A stretch of 33,376 nt of DNA, from positions 1 to 33,376 of the forward strand of contig JAUSIT010000035.1 in assembly GCA_030647965.1 (NCBI GenBank). Direction: 5' to 3'. Below, piece after piece: positions 1 to 31,665 of this stretch (position 1 is the first letter of the stretch; every line of letters starts with the position of its first letter). Source of the DNA: Nanobdellota archaeon. Lineage in GTDB: Archaea; Nanobdellota; Nanobdellia; Pacearchaeales; GW2011-AR1. A program made the position numbers and the translations under genes. The notes beneath the pieces are model-generated. The model saw only the letters and a program-made list of their open reading frames with translations, did not search any database and was not told the DNA's origin.

Positions 1-120
1 AAATCTACAATATTTAGGTTGTAGTAATTATTTGTTTGTGTAGATTTTTCCGGTTCTCACAAAACCACGAACAAACCTCGACTTTTAAGTGGGGGTAAAA
101 ACCCCTCAGGGTTTTGTGAT
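1..120 (-). repeat. Two-hairpin intergenic element, family F copy 1 (may be truncated by window edge)
   Basis: On the + strand AAATCTACA...TGTAGATTT stem, linker TTCCGGTTC, then TCACAAAACC...GGTTTTGTGA stem with an inner GGGG-TAAAAA-CCCC hairpin. 30-nt core (39-68) TGTAGATTTTTCCGGTTCTCACAAAACCAC is identical to 21474-21503. Confidence 0.75.
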
Positions 121-3523: not shown

Positions 3524-3633
3524 GTTTGCTTTAATAGCAAAGATAAAATAGCTATCTGGCGATAGCTTCGAGTAATTAATAAATTATTGGGAGCCGCTAG
3601 GCGACTTAGTATAAGAACGAAGTGCAATAATTA
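3524..3633 (-). repeat. Dispersed structured repeat family E, copy E2 (inverted relative to E1)
   Basis: Reverse complement reads TAATTATTGCACTTCGTTCTTATACTAAGTCGCCTAGCGGCTCC...ATCTTTGCTATTAAAGCAAAC. Confidence 0.75.
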
Positions 3634-12160: not shown

Positions 12161-12350
12161 TTGAGCTTCGCTTTATATTAAGTCGTCAAAAAGTTTTACT
12201 CTTTAACTTTTTATTATTGTTCTTTTGATATAAAAAGAGTAAAACTTTTTCTATCGGCTCCTAAACTTTTATTATTTGATAAATATTTTCTGAATATGTA
12301 TTATTAATAAATCGTAATTTGATGCAAGGCAAATCCATATATCTTTGCTT
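12161..12350 (+). repeat. Family E copy E4, carrying a 17-bp perfect inverted repeat
   Basis: GAGCTTCGC...AAGTCG...CGGCTCC framework; AAAAAGTTTTACTCTTT (12188-12204) / AAAGAGTAAAACTTTTT (12234-12250); right end GGCAAATCCATATATCTTTGCTTAAGCAA. Confidence 0.6.
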
Positions 12351-16314: not shown

Positions 16315-16761
16315 ATGTGTATGAATGTTAGTAAAGAAGATTTGCTAAGAATCAATCAGGGGTTTGGGGGAAATTTAAGAAGTGATTCCAGCCTTGATTT
16401 TGCAATAGAAATGCAAAACAATGAAAAATTGGGGATTTATAAAAAATTAGCCCATTTGATGAGAGCAATACTTGTTGACCATCCATTTTCGGATGGAAAT
16501 CAGAAAAACTCTCCGGTTTATTTACGGAGTTTTTTGGATGCTCCAAAATCAAGACCAGCAAAATCACAAATAAATTCTAAGGAATTTGGTTTTGATTTTG
16601 GACACAAAAGAACTGCTGCATTTGTTGCTCTTGCTTTTGCAAATGAACATAAAAAACAGGTTAATAATGATCTGCTTTTGCATAACATTGTATCAATAGC
16701 CAAGCAAAATATTACTAATATCAGAAATATTGAATGGAGATTAAAAAATGCAATTATTTAA
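16315..16761 (+). CDS. Fic/Doc-family toxin, interrupted by inserted element D
   Basis: ILVDHPFSDGN + KRTAAFVALAFANEH is the Fic/Doc core motif split by 35 in-frame codons (16501-16605). Confidence 0.75.
   Translation: MCMNVSKEDLLRINQGFGGNLRSDSSLDFAIEMQNNEKLGIYKKLAHLMRAILVDHPFSDGNQKNSPVYLRSFLDAPKSRPAKSQINSKEFGFDFGHKRTAAFVALAFANEHKKQVNNDLLLHNIVSIAKQNITNIRNIEWRLKNAII
16501..16605 (-). mobile_element. Two-hairpin gene-embedded element, copy D (antisense to host gene)
   Basis: Minus strand: GTGTCCAAAATCAA...TTGATTTTGGAGCATCCAAAAAACTCCG...CGGAGAGTTTTTCTG; 10-bp stem 1, linker GAGCATCC, stem 2 AAAAACTCCG/CGGA(GA)GTTTTT. Confidence 0.75.
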
Positions 16762-16951
16762 ACAAAATGAAATTTTGAGAAAGCATAAATATATATTTGA
16801 TGCTCTTGAGCAATATGATTTGACAAGAGAATTGCCTTTTCAAAGGAAGAGAATAGATATTACTTTGTCAGTCAGGACTATAAATAAATTAAAGAAATTA
16901 AAAGAAAAAACAGGCAAGCCAATTTCACAGATAATAGAAGAAAAATTTTGA
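16748..16951 (+). CDS. Ribbon-helix-helix-like protein, possible antitoxin
   Basis: KRIDITLSVRTINKLKKLKEKTGKPISQIIEEKF; overlaps the Fic-like ORF. Confidence 0.65.
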   Translation: MQLFKQNEILRKHKYIFDALEQYDLTRELPFQRKRIDITLSVRTINKLKKLKEKTGKPISQIIEEKF

Positions 16952-20226: not shown

Positions 20227-20713
20227 ATGCATGATGAAATAATTCATGTTTATGAAAAAGAAGAGGAGATTAAGCTATTTGTTAATAAATTGAAGCAATT
20301 TTCTTTTGAGGATTTGGAAAAAACAAATCATTTTGATTATGTCAGAAATGCGGTTAAAACCACACTTCCGCGGTGTTGCATTTCTGAACATCCCAAAAAC
20401 AAGGGACGTTCTTTTTGTTGATTTGATGTCTCATTGTTTTTCTGATTCTGTTGCTCAGAAAAATACAAATATTAAGTTTATAGAAAAGAATTTTTCAGAA
20501 TTTGAAAAAATAGAATTAATCCAAAAAAGAAAGCATAGAAATAATAAAATTAGTTATGATTTTTATTATAATCTTGATGATGGAACTTACATTATTTATT
20601 CAATTGCTTTTGAAGAAAAACCCTTGTTGATAAATGCATTTCATGTAAACAGAAATTTTATATCTTTTAAGAAAAAATTGCTTAAGGCATATCAAAGAAG
20701 AGTTATTGGCTAA
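20227..20713 (+). CDS. Toxin-like protein, reading frame interrupted by element A
   Basis: Upstream ORF (frame of 20227) ...EKTNHFDY; downstream ORF (frame of 20306) SVAQKNTNIKFIEKNFSEFEKIELIQKRKHRNNKISYDFYYNLDDGTYIIYSI; frames join on removal of 106 nt. Family assignment (RelE/BrnT/DUF4258-like) tentative. Confidence 0.55.
20339..20444 (+). mobile_element. Two-hairpin gene-embedded element, copy A
   Basis: ATGTCAGAAATGC...GCATTTCTGAACATCCCAAAAACAAGGGAC...GTCTCATTGTTTTTCTG; both stems readable directly. Confidence 0.8.
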
Positions 20714-21440: not shown

Positions 21441-21532
21441 AAAAATCTCCATAATTTATTTTGGAATCTAAAATGTAGATTTTTCCGGTTCTCACAAAAC
21501 CACTAGCAAAAAATTAATCAGAGTTTTGTGAT
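21441..21532 (-). repeat. Two-hairpin intergenic element, family F copy 2
   Basis: AAAAATCT...AGATTTTT stem, linker CCGGTTC, TCACAAAAC...GTTTTGTGA stem; 30-nt core identical to copy 1. Confidence 0.75.
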
Positions 21533-22372: not shown

Positions 22373-23139
22373 ATGCAAGAAGAGATTTTATTTAAAGAAA
22401 CAAAATCTGGAACAAAATTGAATGATAAAGGAGAATTAATAAGTCAATATCAAAGGAAGGTAGAGAATCTTGTAGATATTAAAGATGTTGAAAATAATAA
22501 AATAGGTATAGATGCTAACATAATGACTTCTGCTATTTTGAACAAAGATTTTAAAGAAATAATTATTCAAAACATGGGCAAAGATTTTCCATATACTACT
22601 GAATCTTGCAAGAAAGAGACAATCGGCAATGTCAGAAATTAAACTGCATCATTTATGATGTAGACGTAACTTTACTGCGTTAATTTCTGATCATCCTAAA
22701 AACAAGGGGCTTTACAAACCACACCTTTTAAGGTGTGGTGCCCCATTGTTTTTTTGATATAATAAAAATATTAAAGGTGAATTGTGAAGAAGCAACAGAA
22801 AAATTTGAAGAATTAAAAAAGGATATCTCTTTGAATATCTTAGAATTTAAAGAAGAAGATTATATTGCTGGAAGAAATTTTTTTAATGAGGTTTTGTCTT
22901 CTGGGATGAAAATAAAAAAGATAAATACTTTTCTAATAGATTGTGTTAATATTTGCATATTATTAAGAAATAAAATACAGGTATTCTTTTCAAATGATGA
23001 AGACTTGAAAAAAGTATGCAAGAGATTTAATAAGAATATAGAAGTTATTTCAATAGCAGAATCTAATGAAAAAGTTATAAAAAATTTCTTTAGGCAGAAA
23101 CAGAAATACTGGAAGAAGGGTCAAAAATCAAAGAGATAG
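22373..23139 (+). CDS. PIN-domain-like (VapC-type) protein interrupted by element B
   Basis: Upstream IGIDANIMTSAILNKDFKEIII...CKKETIGN; downstream IIKILKVNCEEATEKF...FLIDCVNICILLRNKIQVFFSNDEDLKKVCKRFN; frames join on removal of 128 nt. Confidence 0.65.
22629..22756 (+). mobile_element. Two-hairpin gene-embedded element, copy B
   Basis: ATGTCAGAAATTAA...TTAATTTCTGATCATCCTAAAAACAAGGGGC..ACCACACC-TTTTAA-GGTGTGGT..GCCCCATTGTTTTTTTG. Confidence 0.8.
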
Positions 23140-26007: not shown

Positions 26008-26409
26008 TTAAAACCCTAAGCAATCTCTGTATTTTGTCATTGACTTGAATTTCCAGAGAAGTGAAGGGGTTGATAGGGATGTTTCAATTCCTAAGTCATT
26101 GTTTGCTTTTGCTTTTTTTATTATTGAGCAGAAGTTTGATGTTGTTAGTTCATTTAGATATTTTGAGCTAAGAAGTATAGTTATGTCTGGGTTTTCTACA
26201 TTGCCTTCTTTAACAGAGCCTTTTGTGATTGCATAGGTTTTTTCCCATTGTCTTTGGCCTGAGTTGAAATCAGAAAAATCCTCTTGATTATTCGTGGGAT
26301 TTTTGGGATGCTCAGAAATTAACGCAGTAGAATTTCTGACATTGTAGAATTTAAGTAAGAGGGCAGAGTTGTCTGGAAGAGCTTGAATCATGGAGTTCTT
26401 GGAAAGCAT
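26008..26409 (-). pseudogene. 5'-truncated duplicate of the 27655-28194 gene, carrying element C
   Basis: Near-identical to the downstream copy over most of its length; lacks the N-terminal membrane/signal region; 24 extra in-frame codons. Confidence 0.7.
26271..26342 (-). mobile_element. Two-hairpin gene-embedded element, copy C (72 nt)
   Basis: Minus strand ATGTCAGAAATTCTACTGCGTTAATTTCTGAGCATCCCAAAAATCC...GGATTTTTCTG; absent from the paralog. Confidence 0.85.
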
Positions 26410-26547: not shown

Positions 26548-27138
26548 ATGATAGAACTAACAAGGAAGGAACAGGAAGCATTGCTAATTATCTACAAAAG
26601 CGTTGCTAATTTTTACAATGCGAATTCTCTGAGTAAAGAGCTTGAAATAACTCAAGTTGGAACTATGAAACTTTTAAAGAGGTTTGAAAAAAATAACATA
26701 CTTTTGAGTAAAAAGATTGGAAAATCAATTATTTATAAGATTAATATAAAAGAAGAGTTTGTACAAAAACTAATTGCATTTGCTTTAATAAATGAGGCAG
26801 GTAAATATCAAAGATGGAAAGATGAATTTAAATCTTTATATAACAAAGACAGAATTTTATTGTTTTATGGATCTGCTTCTAGAAACTATTCTAATGCAAA
26901 GGATATAGATATATTTGTTGTGATTGATAAGAAAGAGTTTCGTGAAATAAATAAAAAGCTTGAAGAAATTCAGAAGATATTGCCAAAAAAACTTCATGCA
27001 ATTAAAGCAACAAAAGAAGATTTAGTAAAAAATATAAAAGAAGATAATAAAGCCATGGTAGAAATACTTAAAACAGCAATTGTTTTATATGGATATGATG
27101 AGTACATGGGGGTTATAAATGAATTCACAAGCTTCTAA
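26548..27138 (+). CDS. HTH + nucleotidyltransferase (MNT-type antitoxin-like)
   Basis: N-terminal wHTH-like region; LFYGSASRNYSNAKDIDIFVVIDKK. Confidence 0.75.
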   Translation: MIELTRKEQEALLIIYKSVANFYNANSLSKELEITQVGTMKLLKRFEKNNILLSKKIGKSIIYKINIKEEFVQKLIAFALINEAGKYQRWKDEFKSLYNKDRILLFYGSASRNYSNAKDIDIFVVIDKKEFREINKKLEEIQKILPKKLHAIKATKEDLVKNIKEDNKAMVEILKTAIVLYGYDEYMGVINEFTSF

Positions 27139-27652
27139 ACATCTTGATTGGTGCTTGAACAAGGCAAAAAAAGAGATAGAAGAGTGCAAAAAGCAAAAAA
27201 AGAATATTCGCCATAGGGGTTTATTTAAAATTGAACCAGATAAAAAACTTGCTTCTGAACATTTGCAGAAAGCAATACATAATTTAGAGGTATTAAGGCT
27301 TCTTAGAAAAAATAAATTCTCAGATTGGTCTATAACTGCTGGTTTCTATACTTTATATCATTGTTTTTTAGCAATTGCCGTAAAATATGGATATGAATCT
27401 AAAAATCAAACTTGCACTATTGCTTTAATGGAAAATTTACAAGAACAGAGCAAGATATCAATTAATCCAGATATTATTGAGTTTATGAAATATAATGAAG
27501 AAGAAAACCATCCTAAAGACAGCATTATTGAACTTAGAGAGAATTATACTTATGGGGTGGATCTTGAAGTTAAGGATAAAGAACAACTTGATAAAATAGA
27601 AAAATTATGTGTTGAATTTATTGATTCTGTTAAGGATATTATTTATACCTGA
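27119..27652 (+). CDS. HEPN-domain protein (toxin-like)
   Basis: LEVLRLLRKNKFSDWSITAGFYTLYHCFLAIAVKYGYESKN; overlaps the MNT gene. Confidence 0.7.
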   Translation: MNSQASKHLDWCLNKAKKEIEECKKQKKNIRHRGLFKIEPDKKLASEHLQKAIHNLEVLRLLRKNKFSDWSITAGFYTLYHCFLAIAVKYGYESKNQTCTIALMENLQEQSKISINPDIIEFMKYNEEENHPKDSIIELRENYTYGVDLEVKDKEQLDKIEKLCVEFIDSVKDIIYT

Positions 27653-27654
27653 AT

Positions 27655-28194
27655 CTAAAACCCCAGACAATCCTTATATTTTGTCATTGACTTGAATTTC
27701 CAGAGAAGTGAAGGGGTTGATAGGGATGTTTCAATTCCTAAGTCATTGTTTGCTTTTGCTTTTTTTATTATTGAGCAGAAGTTTGATGTTGTTAGTTCAT
27801 TTAGATATTTTGAACTGAGAAGTATAGTTATGTCTGGGTTTTCTACATTGCCTTCTTTAACAGAGCTTTTTGTGATTGCATAGGTTTTTTCCCATTGTCT
27901 TTGGCCTGAATTAAAGTTATAGAACTTAAGTAAGAGGGCAGAGTTGTCTGGAAGAGCTTGAATCATGGAGTTCTTGGAAAGCATACTCGCAAAGTTTTCA
28001 TATGTTATTTTTATTGGGGGAGCAGATGGGGTTGAGGGAGTTGTGGGGGTTGAAGTAGGGGGGGTGATTGCGTTGGCTGTGAATGTTGACTTAACAAAAG
28101 GGCTTATGTAAAAAGCTAATAAAATAATAAGTGATGTAATTATAATTAAAAGAACAAATTTATTGCTAAAAACTTTTTTAATTCGCTTGAACAT
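27655..28194 (-). CDS. Membrane-anchored protein (intact paralog without the element)
   Basis: N-terminal TM, Pro/Thr-rich linker, then LLLKFYNFNSGQRQWEKTYAITKSSVKEG; possibly SCP2-like, not certain. Confidence 0.65.
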   Translation of the reverse strand: MFKRIKKVFSNKFVLLIIITSLIILLAFYISPFVKSTFTANAITPPTSTPTTPSTPSAPPIKITYENFASMLSKNSMIQALPDNSALLLKFYNFNSGQRQWEKTYAITKSSVKEGNVENPDITILLSSKYLNELTTSNFCSIIKKAKANNDLGIETSLSTPSLLWKFKSMTKYKDCLGF

Positions 28195-31382: not shown

Positions 31383-31665
31383 TTAGCACTTCGTGAGGAT
31401 ACGAAGTCGACTTGAATCTCTAATTTAATTCTATTCTAAGGGATATGTTTCGCACTTTGTGCGATTTAGCACTTCGTTCTTATACTAAGTCGCCTGGCGG
31501 CTCCTGACGTTTATTAATTCCTTAACTTATCTGTCTGCCTTTCATAATGTATTTATTAATTAATTATCTATCTTGCTTGAAAATTATTGAGTTGTAGTTA
31601 TTAATTATCCTAAATTGTCGCCAGACAATTCCATATATCCTTGCGAAGCAACTATATCTTAAATT
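31383..31665 (+). repeat. Family E copy E3 (expanded)
   Basis: GCACTTCGTTCTTATACTAAGTCGCCTGGCGGCTCC...TTGTCGCCAGACAATTCCATATATCCTTGCGAAGCAA. Confidence 0.6.

What the first reader, a model, noticed from the sequence alone, without database searches (positions are those of the whole stretch)
16501..16605. Element D splits the Fic/Doc catalytic motif between HPFSDGN and KRTAAF, in antisense orientation
The Fic family motif is HPFx(D/E)GN(K/G)R. Here it reads HPFSDGN-[35 codons]-KRTAAFVALAFANEH. The 105-nt insert is in frame and has no stop codons although its structured strand is antisense to the gene. Unless removed, the insert should disable the active-site loop. The orientation argues against a simple strand-specific intron and favours DNA-level mobility or toxin inactivation, but the preserved frame is notable.
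Basis: partly seen in the sequence, partly recalled or inferred. Interest (0 to 1): 0.82.

Follow-up and report, generated by a model that had tools for sequence, protein, structure and literature searches.

The report
Mobile hairpin element inside archaeal Fic gene
A short selfish DNA hairpin element that has spread through a group of tiny archaea has landed, in frame, in the active-site motif of a Fic/Doc-type toxin gene, and sister copies lie in frame inside housekeeping genes such as leucyl-tRNA synthetase, so these archaea carry mobile DNA that is apparently translated inside their proteins.

Summary
The Fic ORF (16315-16761, +) carries a 105-nt, stop-free, in-frame insert between HPFSDGN and KRTAAF. 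Homologs in 24 related genomes lack it; 18 were aligned and all read HPF[ST]DGN-K[RK]T without a break.

The insert belongs to a structured repeat family: about 55 copies in the own genome (A, B, C, D in this window) and 35 nearly identical ones in one relative. All 64 database stretches found are from Pacearchaeota/Nanoarchaeota/Woesearchaeota-type MAGs. The core is two hairpins around a conserved CATCC, with highly variable loops, no terminal inverted repeats and, at natural empty sites, no target duplication.

Copies kept inside open genes preserve the frame in either orientation, including leucyl-tRNA synthetase, an NMN adenylyltransferase-like gene, a YggS-type gene and diphthine synthase. 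Antisense copies rule out an intron. Dispensable genes are often broken.

Best explanation: a non-autonomous palindrome-associated transposable element, probably moved by an IS200/IS605-type Y1 transposase (inferred), tolerated in proteins as Rickettsia palindromic elements are. In Fic it very probably disables the catalytic loop, although the flanks show no decay. New variant of a known kind; bacterial precedents and one cited archaeal precedent exist.

The parts
16500..16604 (-). Element D: 105-nt member of the hairpin repeat family, antisense to and in frame with the Fic ORF (register +/-1 nt)
   Evidence: absent from homologs
16541..16603 (-). Hairpin 1 of D (basal arms about 16592-16603 and 16541-16552)
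16536..16540 (-). Conserved junction CATCC (GGATG on the + strand)
   Evidence: invariant in the seed alignment
16502..16535 (-). Hairpin 2 of D (AAAAAACTC... / ...GAGTTTTT) followed by the 3' end CTGAT
16315..16761 (+). Fic/Doc-type ORF (148 codons) with catalytic motif split between HPFSDGN and KRTAAF
16749..16951 (+). Downstream ribbon-helix-helix-like small gene overlapping the fic stop, intact (probable antitoxin)
   Evidence: sequence; homologous gene follows fic in 17 of 18 relatives
20340..20445 (+). Copy A (106 nt), probably interrupts a gene starting near 20229 with a frame shift
22630..22757 (+). Copy B (128 nt), interrupts a gene; weak PIN match in the second half
26270..26341 (-). 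Copy C (72 nt), sense and in frame in ORF 26008-26409
27655..28194 (-). Paralogous gene without copy C: natural empty site, flanks 94% identical, difference exactly 72 nt
   Evidence: D1 spacing 1647, D2 spacing 1575

Best explanation
Element D is one copy of a lineage-specific, non-autonomous mobile DNA element (54 to about 180 nt, two conserved hairpin bases around CATCC, no coding capacity of its own) that inserts into T-rich sites without duplicating the target. Shown: the family, its structure, its spread in related archaea, insertion into genes relative to natural empty sites, and the in-frame pattern. Inferred: movement as folded single-stranded DNA by a Y1 (HUH) transposase of IS200/IS605 type acting in trans; translation of in-frame copies as an extra loop of the host protein, as for Rickettsia palindromic elements. 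Copies that break needed genes are lost, so survivors in such genes are stop-free multiples of three in either orientation. In Fic the 35-residue insert lies inside the invariant catalytic-loop motif and most likely abolishes Fic activity while keeping the ORF, and its overlap with the downstream small gene, intact. I give about 0.8 to the element-plus-in-frame reading, about 0.55 to Y1 mobilisation, and about 0.75 to loss of Fic activity.
For: Structure: 100% of cells paired, covariation 0.286 against 0.115 in shuffles and at most 0.06 when slid; same fold unaided. Copies: about 55 in the own genome, 18 of 57 relatives, 14 of 285 genomes of the class; an exact pattern over 85,488 species hits 64 stretches, all archaeal MAGs of Pacearchaeota/Nanoarchaeota/Woesearchaeota type or an uncultured archaeon. 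Recent movement: 35 full-length copies at 97-100% identity in G022, one of which interrupts a transposase gene whose uninterrupted relatives show a net insertion of exactly 115 nt and no duplication; empty site for C in this window; Fic homologs without D. In-frame pattern in both orientations, including leucyl-tRNA synthetase, NMN adenylyltransferase-like, YggS and diphthine synthase genes; in the own genome 9 of 13 genic copies are in frame and stop-free against about 8% expected from the other copies (rough p about 7e-8). IS200/IS605 link: the hairpin-1 tip in four genomes (GAAAACC..CTTTAG..GGATGAA) has the same 30-nt layout as hairpins at Y1 transposase loci in related genomes.
Against: No Y1 transposase in the own genome (85% complete) or in G041, G021, G026, which also carry copies; Y1 presence is only weakly associated with copy number. 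No autonomous copy with a transposase between the two ends in 0.95 Mb of loci. Hairpin tips, which Y1 transposases usually contact, are the most variable part, down to a few bases in G041. Loss of Fic activity is not shown: none of 27 invariant Fic positions is changed in the window protein.
Confidence: 0.8

Rival explanations
1. RNA intron: the element is removed from mRNA, by self-splicing or by the archaeal tRNA splicing endonuclease at a bulge-helix-bulge, so host proteins are unaffected.
For: Conserved core with variable loops, and some copies with stops in long split genes (L030, L085, B), would fit an intron.
Against: The structured strand is antisense to the host gene in Fic, leucyl-tRNA synthetase (L086), NMN adenylyltransferase-like (L030b), diphthine synthase (L056) and an interrupted TrpD-like gene (L103). 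Many copies are intergenic. Splicing gives no reason for 9 of 13 genic copies being stop-free multiples of three. No Rfam match.
Confidence: 0.04
2. Mobile element of the same kind, but moved by an enzyme other than a Y1 transposase (for example a recombinase that recognises folded single strands, as integron integrases do, or a host replication/repair route acting on palindromes).
For: No Y1 gene in several carriers; loops are free to vary while feet and junction are fixed; hairpin interiors flip (L180, L215).
Against: Hairpin tips in several genomes match hairpins of local IS200-type elements; most genomes with fresh, near-identical copies (G022, G029, JAUYDD, JABMQF) do hold Y1 genes; no target duplication and a one-sided T-rich target.
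Confidence: 0.35
3. The insert has been taken into use: the 35 residues give the Fic protein a new, useful property (regulation or altered target), and the frame is kept for that reason.
For: Fic flanks show no decay and the frame is open.
Against: The insertion splits a motif that is invariant in 18 of 18 homologs; it occurs in one genome only; the general in-frame pattern needs no adaptation.
Confidence: 0.07

Closest known systems
PATEs (palindrome-associated transposable elements) of Haloquadratum walsbyi (PMC3119063)
   Same: No terminal inverted repeats, near-terminal palindromes, no target duplication, too short to encode a transposase, multi-copy, versions down to about 50 nt, palindromes resembling IS605-type ends
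   Different: Other archaeal lineage and sequence; loops far more variable; frequent in-frame presence in protein genes, not reported for PATEs in the passages read; parent transposon not identified
Rickettsia palindromic elements (RPE; described in PMC2229807 and PMC10969869)
   Same: About 100-150-nt palindromic repeats found both between genes and in frame inside conserved protein genes, with a recurrent encoded peptide
   Different: Archaeal; two hairpins around CATCC instead of one long palindrome with inverted ends; both orientations relative to the gene; sequence unrelated as far as remembered, not compared here
Coding palindromic repeats of Methanocaldococcus jannaschii (Suyama et al. 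2005, cited in PMC2229807; paper not held)
   Same: Archaeal repeats fused into protein genes, according to the citing review
   Different: Sequences could not be compared; other phylum; the model was not run on that genome
IS200/IS605 family transposons (PMC6006769)
   Same: Subterminal hairpins, no inverted ends, no duplication, TTA-type 5' target; hairpin-tip motif shared with local Y1 elements
   Different: No transposase gene in any copy; a single central CATC instead of two guides; variable hairpin tips
REP/BIME repeats with TnpA-REP (PMC8266576)
   Same: Short hairpins with conserved foot sequence, many copies, mosaics of extra hairpins
   Different: No GTAG-type foot; not extragenic only; discrete ends and clear single insertions

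Membership tests
PATE | No terminal inverted repeats | tested here: met
   Ends are ATGTC/ATGCC... and ...TGAT in nearly all copies, not inverse complements of each other
PATE | Palindromes close to the termini | tested here: met
   Two covarying hairpins start within a few bases of both ends
PATE | No target duplication | tested here: met
   Empty sites: 115 nt in a G022 transposase gene, 72 nt for copy C
PATE | Too short to encode a transposase | tested here: met
   Insert lengths about 49-182 nt
PATE | Palindromes related to those of IS605-type transposons | tested here: inconclusive
   Hairpin-1 tip in four genomes matches hairpins at Y1 loci; not seen in D; parent element not found
Rickettsia palindromic element | Palindromic repeat inserted in frame in conserved protein genes | tested here: met
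   Leucyl-tRNA synthetase, YggS, NMN adenylyltransferase-like, diphthine synthase, Fic
Rickettsia palindromic element | Found in Rickettsia, with RPE sequence | tested here: not met
   All pattern hits are archaeal; RPE sequences themselves were not compared. It works like an RPE but is not filed as one
IS200/IS605 | Encodes a Y1 HUH transposase between the ends | tested here: not met
   No coding sequence in any copy; no end-gene-end arrangement in 0.95 Mb
IS200/IS605 | Guide tetranucleotide 5' to each hairpin foot pairing with the cleavage site | tested here: inconclusive
   Central CATC can pair with 3' GAT or 5' ATG (folds); only one such tract, and ATG/CAT to ACC/GGT covariation also fits a plain stem
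REP/BIME | GTAG-type tetranucleotide at the hairpin foot | tested here: not met
   Foot sequences are ATGTC and CATCC
Intron (self-splicing or bulge-helix-bulge) | Sense orientation relative to the host transcript | tested here: not met
   Antisense in at least five host genes
Intron (self-splicing or bulge-helix-bulge) | Removal from RNA | not testable with these tools
   No transcriptome available
Fic/Doc (host gene) | Contiguous HPFx[DE]GN[KG]R motif | tested here: not met
   Split by 35 codons here, contiguous in 18 of 18 aligned homologs; Pfam Fic 22.5 bits on the part before the split. Homology to the family is clear, activity is doubtful

The most novel reading that the evidence does not exclude
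The insertion in Fic is a reversible switch. If the element leaves seamlessly as single-stranded DNA, as IS200/IS605 elements do, part of the population would carry an active Fic gene, so a mobile repeat would phase-vary a toxin while the in-frame insert keeps the operon translated.
Probability: 0.06. Interest if true: 0.75.

Novelty: new variant of a known kind. Interest (0 to 1): 0.52.

Why it matters
It is a family of miniature mobile elements in DPANN archaea that is repeatedly kept inside protein genes, in either orientation, including leucyl-tRNA synthetase and diphthine synthase. In-frame copies, broken-gene copies and natural empty sites occur side by side in one lineage, which gives a natural experiment on how much foreign peptide a minimal proteome tolerates and on how selfish DNA feeds new protein segments. 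They also interrupt accessory genes, apparently including toxins. The mobilising enzyme is a concrete open question that a simple in vitro assay could answer.

Tried and rejected
Rfam scan of the window: no match. RNA intron: rejected on orientation. Chance hairpin: rejected by the covariance model and shuffles. PDB sequence search with the interrupted Fic ORF gave only chance acetyltransferase matches. Y1 transposase in the own genome: none found. Search for an autonomous copy (left hairpin, gene, right hairpin) in all fetched loci: one unconvincing pair only. Partial copies of the G022 element next to its transposase genes: none; the one adjacent case is a transposase gene interrupted by the element, not its carrier. 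A first regular expression for the hairpin-tip motif was too strict and was replaced. Viral contigs and phages: no family members with the patterns used.

Full report
CHECK OF THE OBSERVATION. The window (contig C39 of a 0.98-Mb, 45-contig archaeal genome, 85% complete) contains a + strand ORF at 16315-16761 that reads HPFSDGN, 35 codons, KRTAAF. Pfam's Fic profile matches the part before the split (E 2e-4, 22.5 bits, just below the 24-bit cut-off). Of 136 genomes of the order searched, 24 besides the own one hold a homolog; 21 of them match the query as two pieces, residues ~1-64 and 96-147, with nothing in between. Eighteen homologs, taken as they stand and aligned, all read HPF[ST]DGN-K[RK]T, and in 17 of 18 a small homologous gene follows; in the window that gene overlaps the fic stop. 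The insert is therefore real and, among the genomes searched, unique to this one.

WHAT THE INSERT IS. Its minus strand belongs to a repeat family. A first nucleotide search showed related stretches elsewhere in the genome. Twelve hand-delimited copies share the frame ATGTC-n-GAAAT ... ATTTC-n-GA-n-CATCC-y-AAAA ... TTTTT-y-TGAT. Wherever both letters are present all consensus pairs form; six pairs show changes on both sides; covariation exceeds all 500 shuffles and all slid registers; RNAalifold finds the same two hairpins without being told. Loops vary from a few bases (G041, down to about 54-nt insertions) to whole sub-hairpins, some of them flipped (L180, L215), and a longer subfamily has extra hairpins at the junction. 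Invariant feet and free loops are shown directly; what recognises them is inference.

DISTRIBUTION. The covariance model finds about 55 copies in the own genome, copies in 18 of 57 relatives and in 14 of 285 genomes drawn from the class. An exact pattern run over 85,488 species representatives hit 64 stretches, all in archaeal MAGs labelled Pacearchaeota, Nanoarchaeota or Woesearchaeota or, in one case, an uncultured archaeon. One genome (JAUYDD) has dozens of near-identical copies, many at contig ends, and G022 has 35 full-length copies at 97-100% identity; both indicate recent movement. None was found in viral contigs or phages with the patterns used.

INSERTION SITES. In G022 one copy interrupts an IS200-type transposase gene; uninterrupted relatives of that gene show a net insertion of 115 nt and no target duplication. 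In the window, copy C (72 nt) sits in one of two 94% identical gene segments and is missing from the other. The base two positions before the element's ATG is T in 88 of 102 copies, and the 5' flank is T-rich. The exact ends are ambiguous by 1-2 nt because bases are shared.

THE IN-FRAME PATTERN. Copies inside open reading frames with at least 25 codons on either side, stop-free and with length divisible by three, include, in sense orientation, a radical-SAM gene (111 nt), a YggS-type gene (87), copy C (72) and two unknown genes (81, 63); and, antisense, Fic D (105), leucyl-tRNA synthetase (63), an NMN adenylyltransferase-like gene (156), an unknown ORF (102) and, in G021, diphthine synthase (129). 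Alignment to solved structures shows the extra residues as an insertion in leucyl-tRNA synthetase, and as the unmatched stretch between two matching halves in YggS and NMN adenylyltransferase; in diphthine synthase the strong match stops just before the element. Other copies break genes: a DraG-like gene (L030), a nucleotidyltransferase-like gene (L085), B and probably A in this window, and a TrpD-like gene in G022 (these names are by eye, not by a family search). In the own genome 9 of 13 genic copies are in frame and open; the other copies predict about 8%. The p value of about 7e-8 is rough, because broken genes were found by eye and may be undercounted. This is what purifying selection on a translated element would leave, and splicing cannot explain it because antisense copies behave the same way.

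MECHANISM. The element encodes nothing, so it must be moved in trans. The lack of inverted repeats and duplications, the one-sided target and the hairpins resemble IS200/IS605 elements, whose transposases bind subterminal hairpins of single-stranded DNA (PMC6006769). The hairpin-1 tip of copies in G022, G029, G041 and JABMQF has the same 30-nt layout (GAAAxC, arm, TTTA loop, arm, ATGA[AG]) as hairpins at Y1 transposase loci in related genomes. Y1 genes occur in 21 of 57 relatives but not in the own assembly, and in 7 of 10 further carriers. No autonomous copy was found. I put Y1 mobilisation at about 0.55. A speculative point: the central CATC can pair with the 5' ATG or the 3' GAT and might serve as a shared guide, but in variants ATG/CAT becomes ACC/GGT on both sides together (L095, L097, L099), which also fits a plain stem foot.

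EFFECT ON FIC. The insertion lies between the catalytic loop residues and the following K/R, a spot contiguous in all aligned homologs, so loss of activity is likely (inference from established knowledge of the Fic fold). Yet none of 27 invariant positions has changed in the window protein. Either the insertion is recent or the product still matters, for example by binding its partner or by keeping the overlapping downstream gene translated. The data do not decide.

COMPARISON. By defining features the element fits the PATE category of Haloquadratum (PMC3119063), except that the parent transposon is unknown. By behaviour in genes it works like Rickettsia palindromic elements (PMC2229807, PMC10969869) without being one. 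An archaeal precedent of coding repeats (Suyama 2005) is cited but could not be read. No description of this family was found in the searches made, which cover open-licence papers only.

Noticed in passing
window 3590-3625 and 31469-31504: A 36-nt inverted pair at 97% (GGAGCCGCTAGGCGACTTAGTATAAGAACGAAGTGC), outside the ORFs listed; probably another repeat family of this genome.
   Followed up: no
window 39-75 and 21474-21510; 2870-2900, 12318-12348, 31614-31644: Two further short repeat families (37 nt at 95%; 31 nt in 3 copies, ATTGTCGCTAGACAATTCCAT...).
   Followed up: no
window 26548-27652: Two adjacent ORFs that look like a nucleotidyltransferase (GSASRNYSNAKDIDIFVV) and a helical partner, possibly an MNT-HEPN-type pair, lying between the duplicated genes that carry and lack copy C.
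   Followed up: no
L180 and L215: Copies whose hairpin interior is inverted relative to sister copies while the feet are unchanged.
   Followed up: partly
L009, L010, L030:2517-2677, L188, L196, L202, L203, L210, L212, L219: A longer subfamily with two extra hairpins between GAGCA and GCATCC; L030:2517-2677 is a 156-nt in-frame antisense member in the NMN adenylyltransferase-like gene.
   Followed up: partly
L117 (G022): An IS200-type transposase gene interrupted by a family member, so the element also hits its possible helper.
   Followed up: yes
homologs in 24 of 136 genomes searched: A short Fic protein with a small downstream ribbon-helix-helix-like partner is widespread and well conserved in these archaea, with invariant HPF[ST]DGNK[RK]T.
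   Followed up: partly
sense in-frame copies L026, L032, L045, L047, L098: All five use the same reading phase (codon GTC/GTT of the element read as V) and give related peptides ending in [FY][SY]D, as RPE families do.
   Followed up: partly
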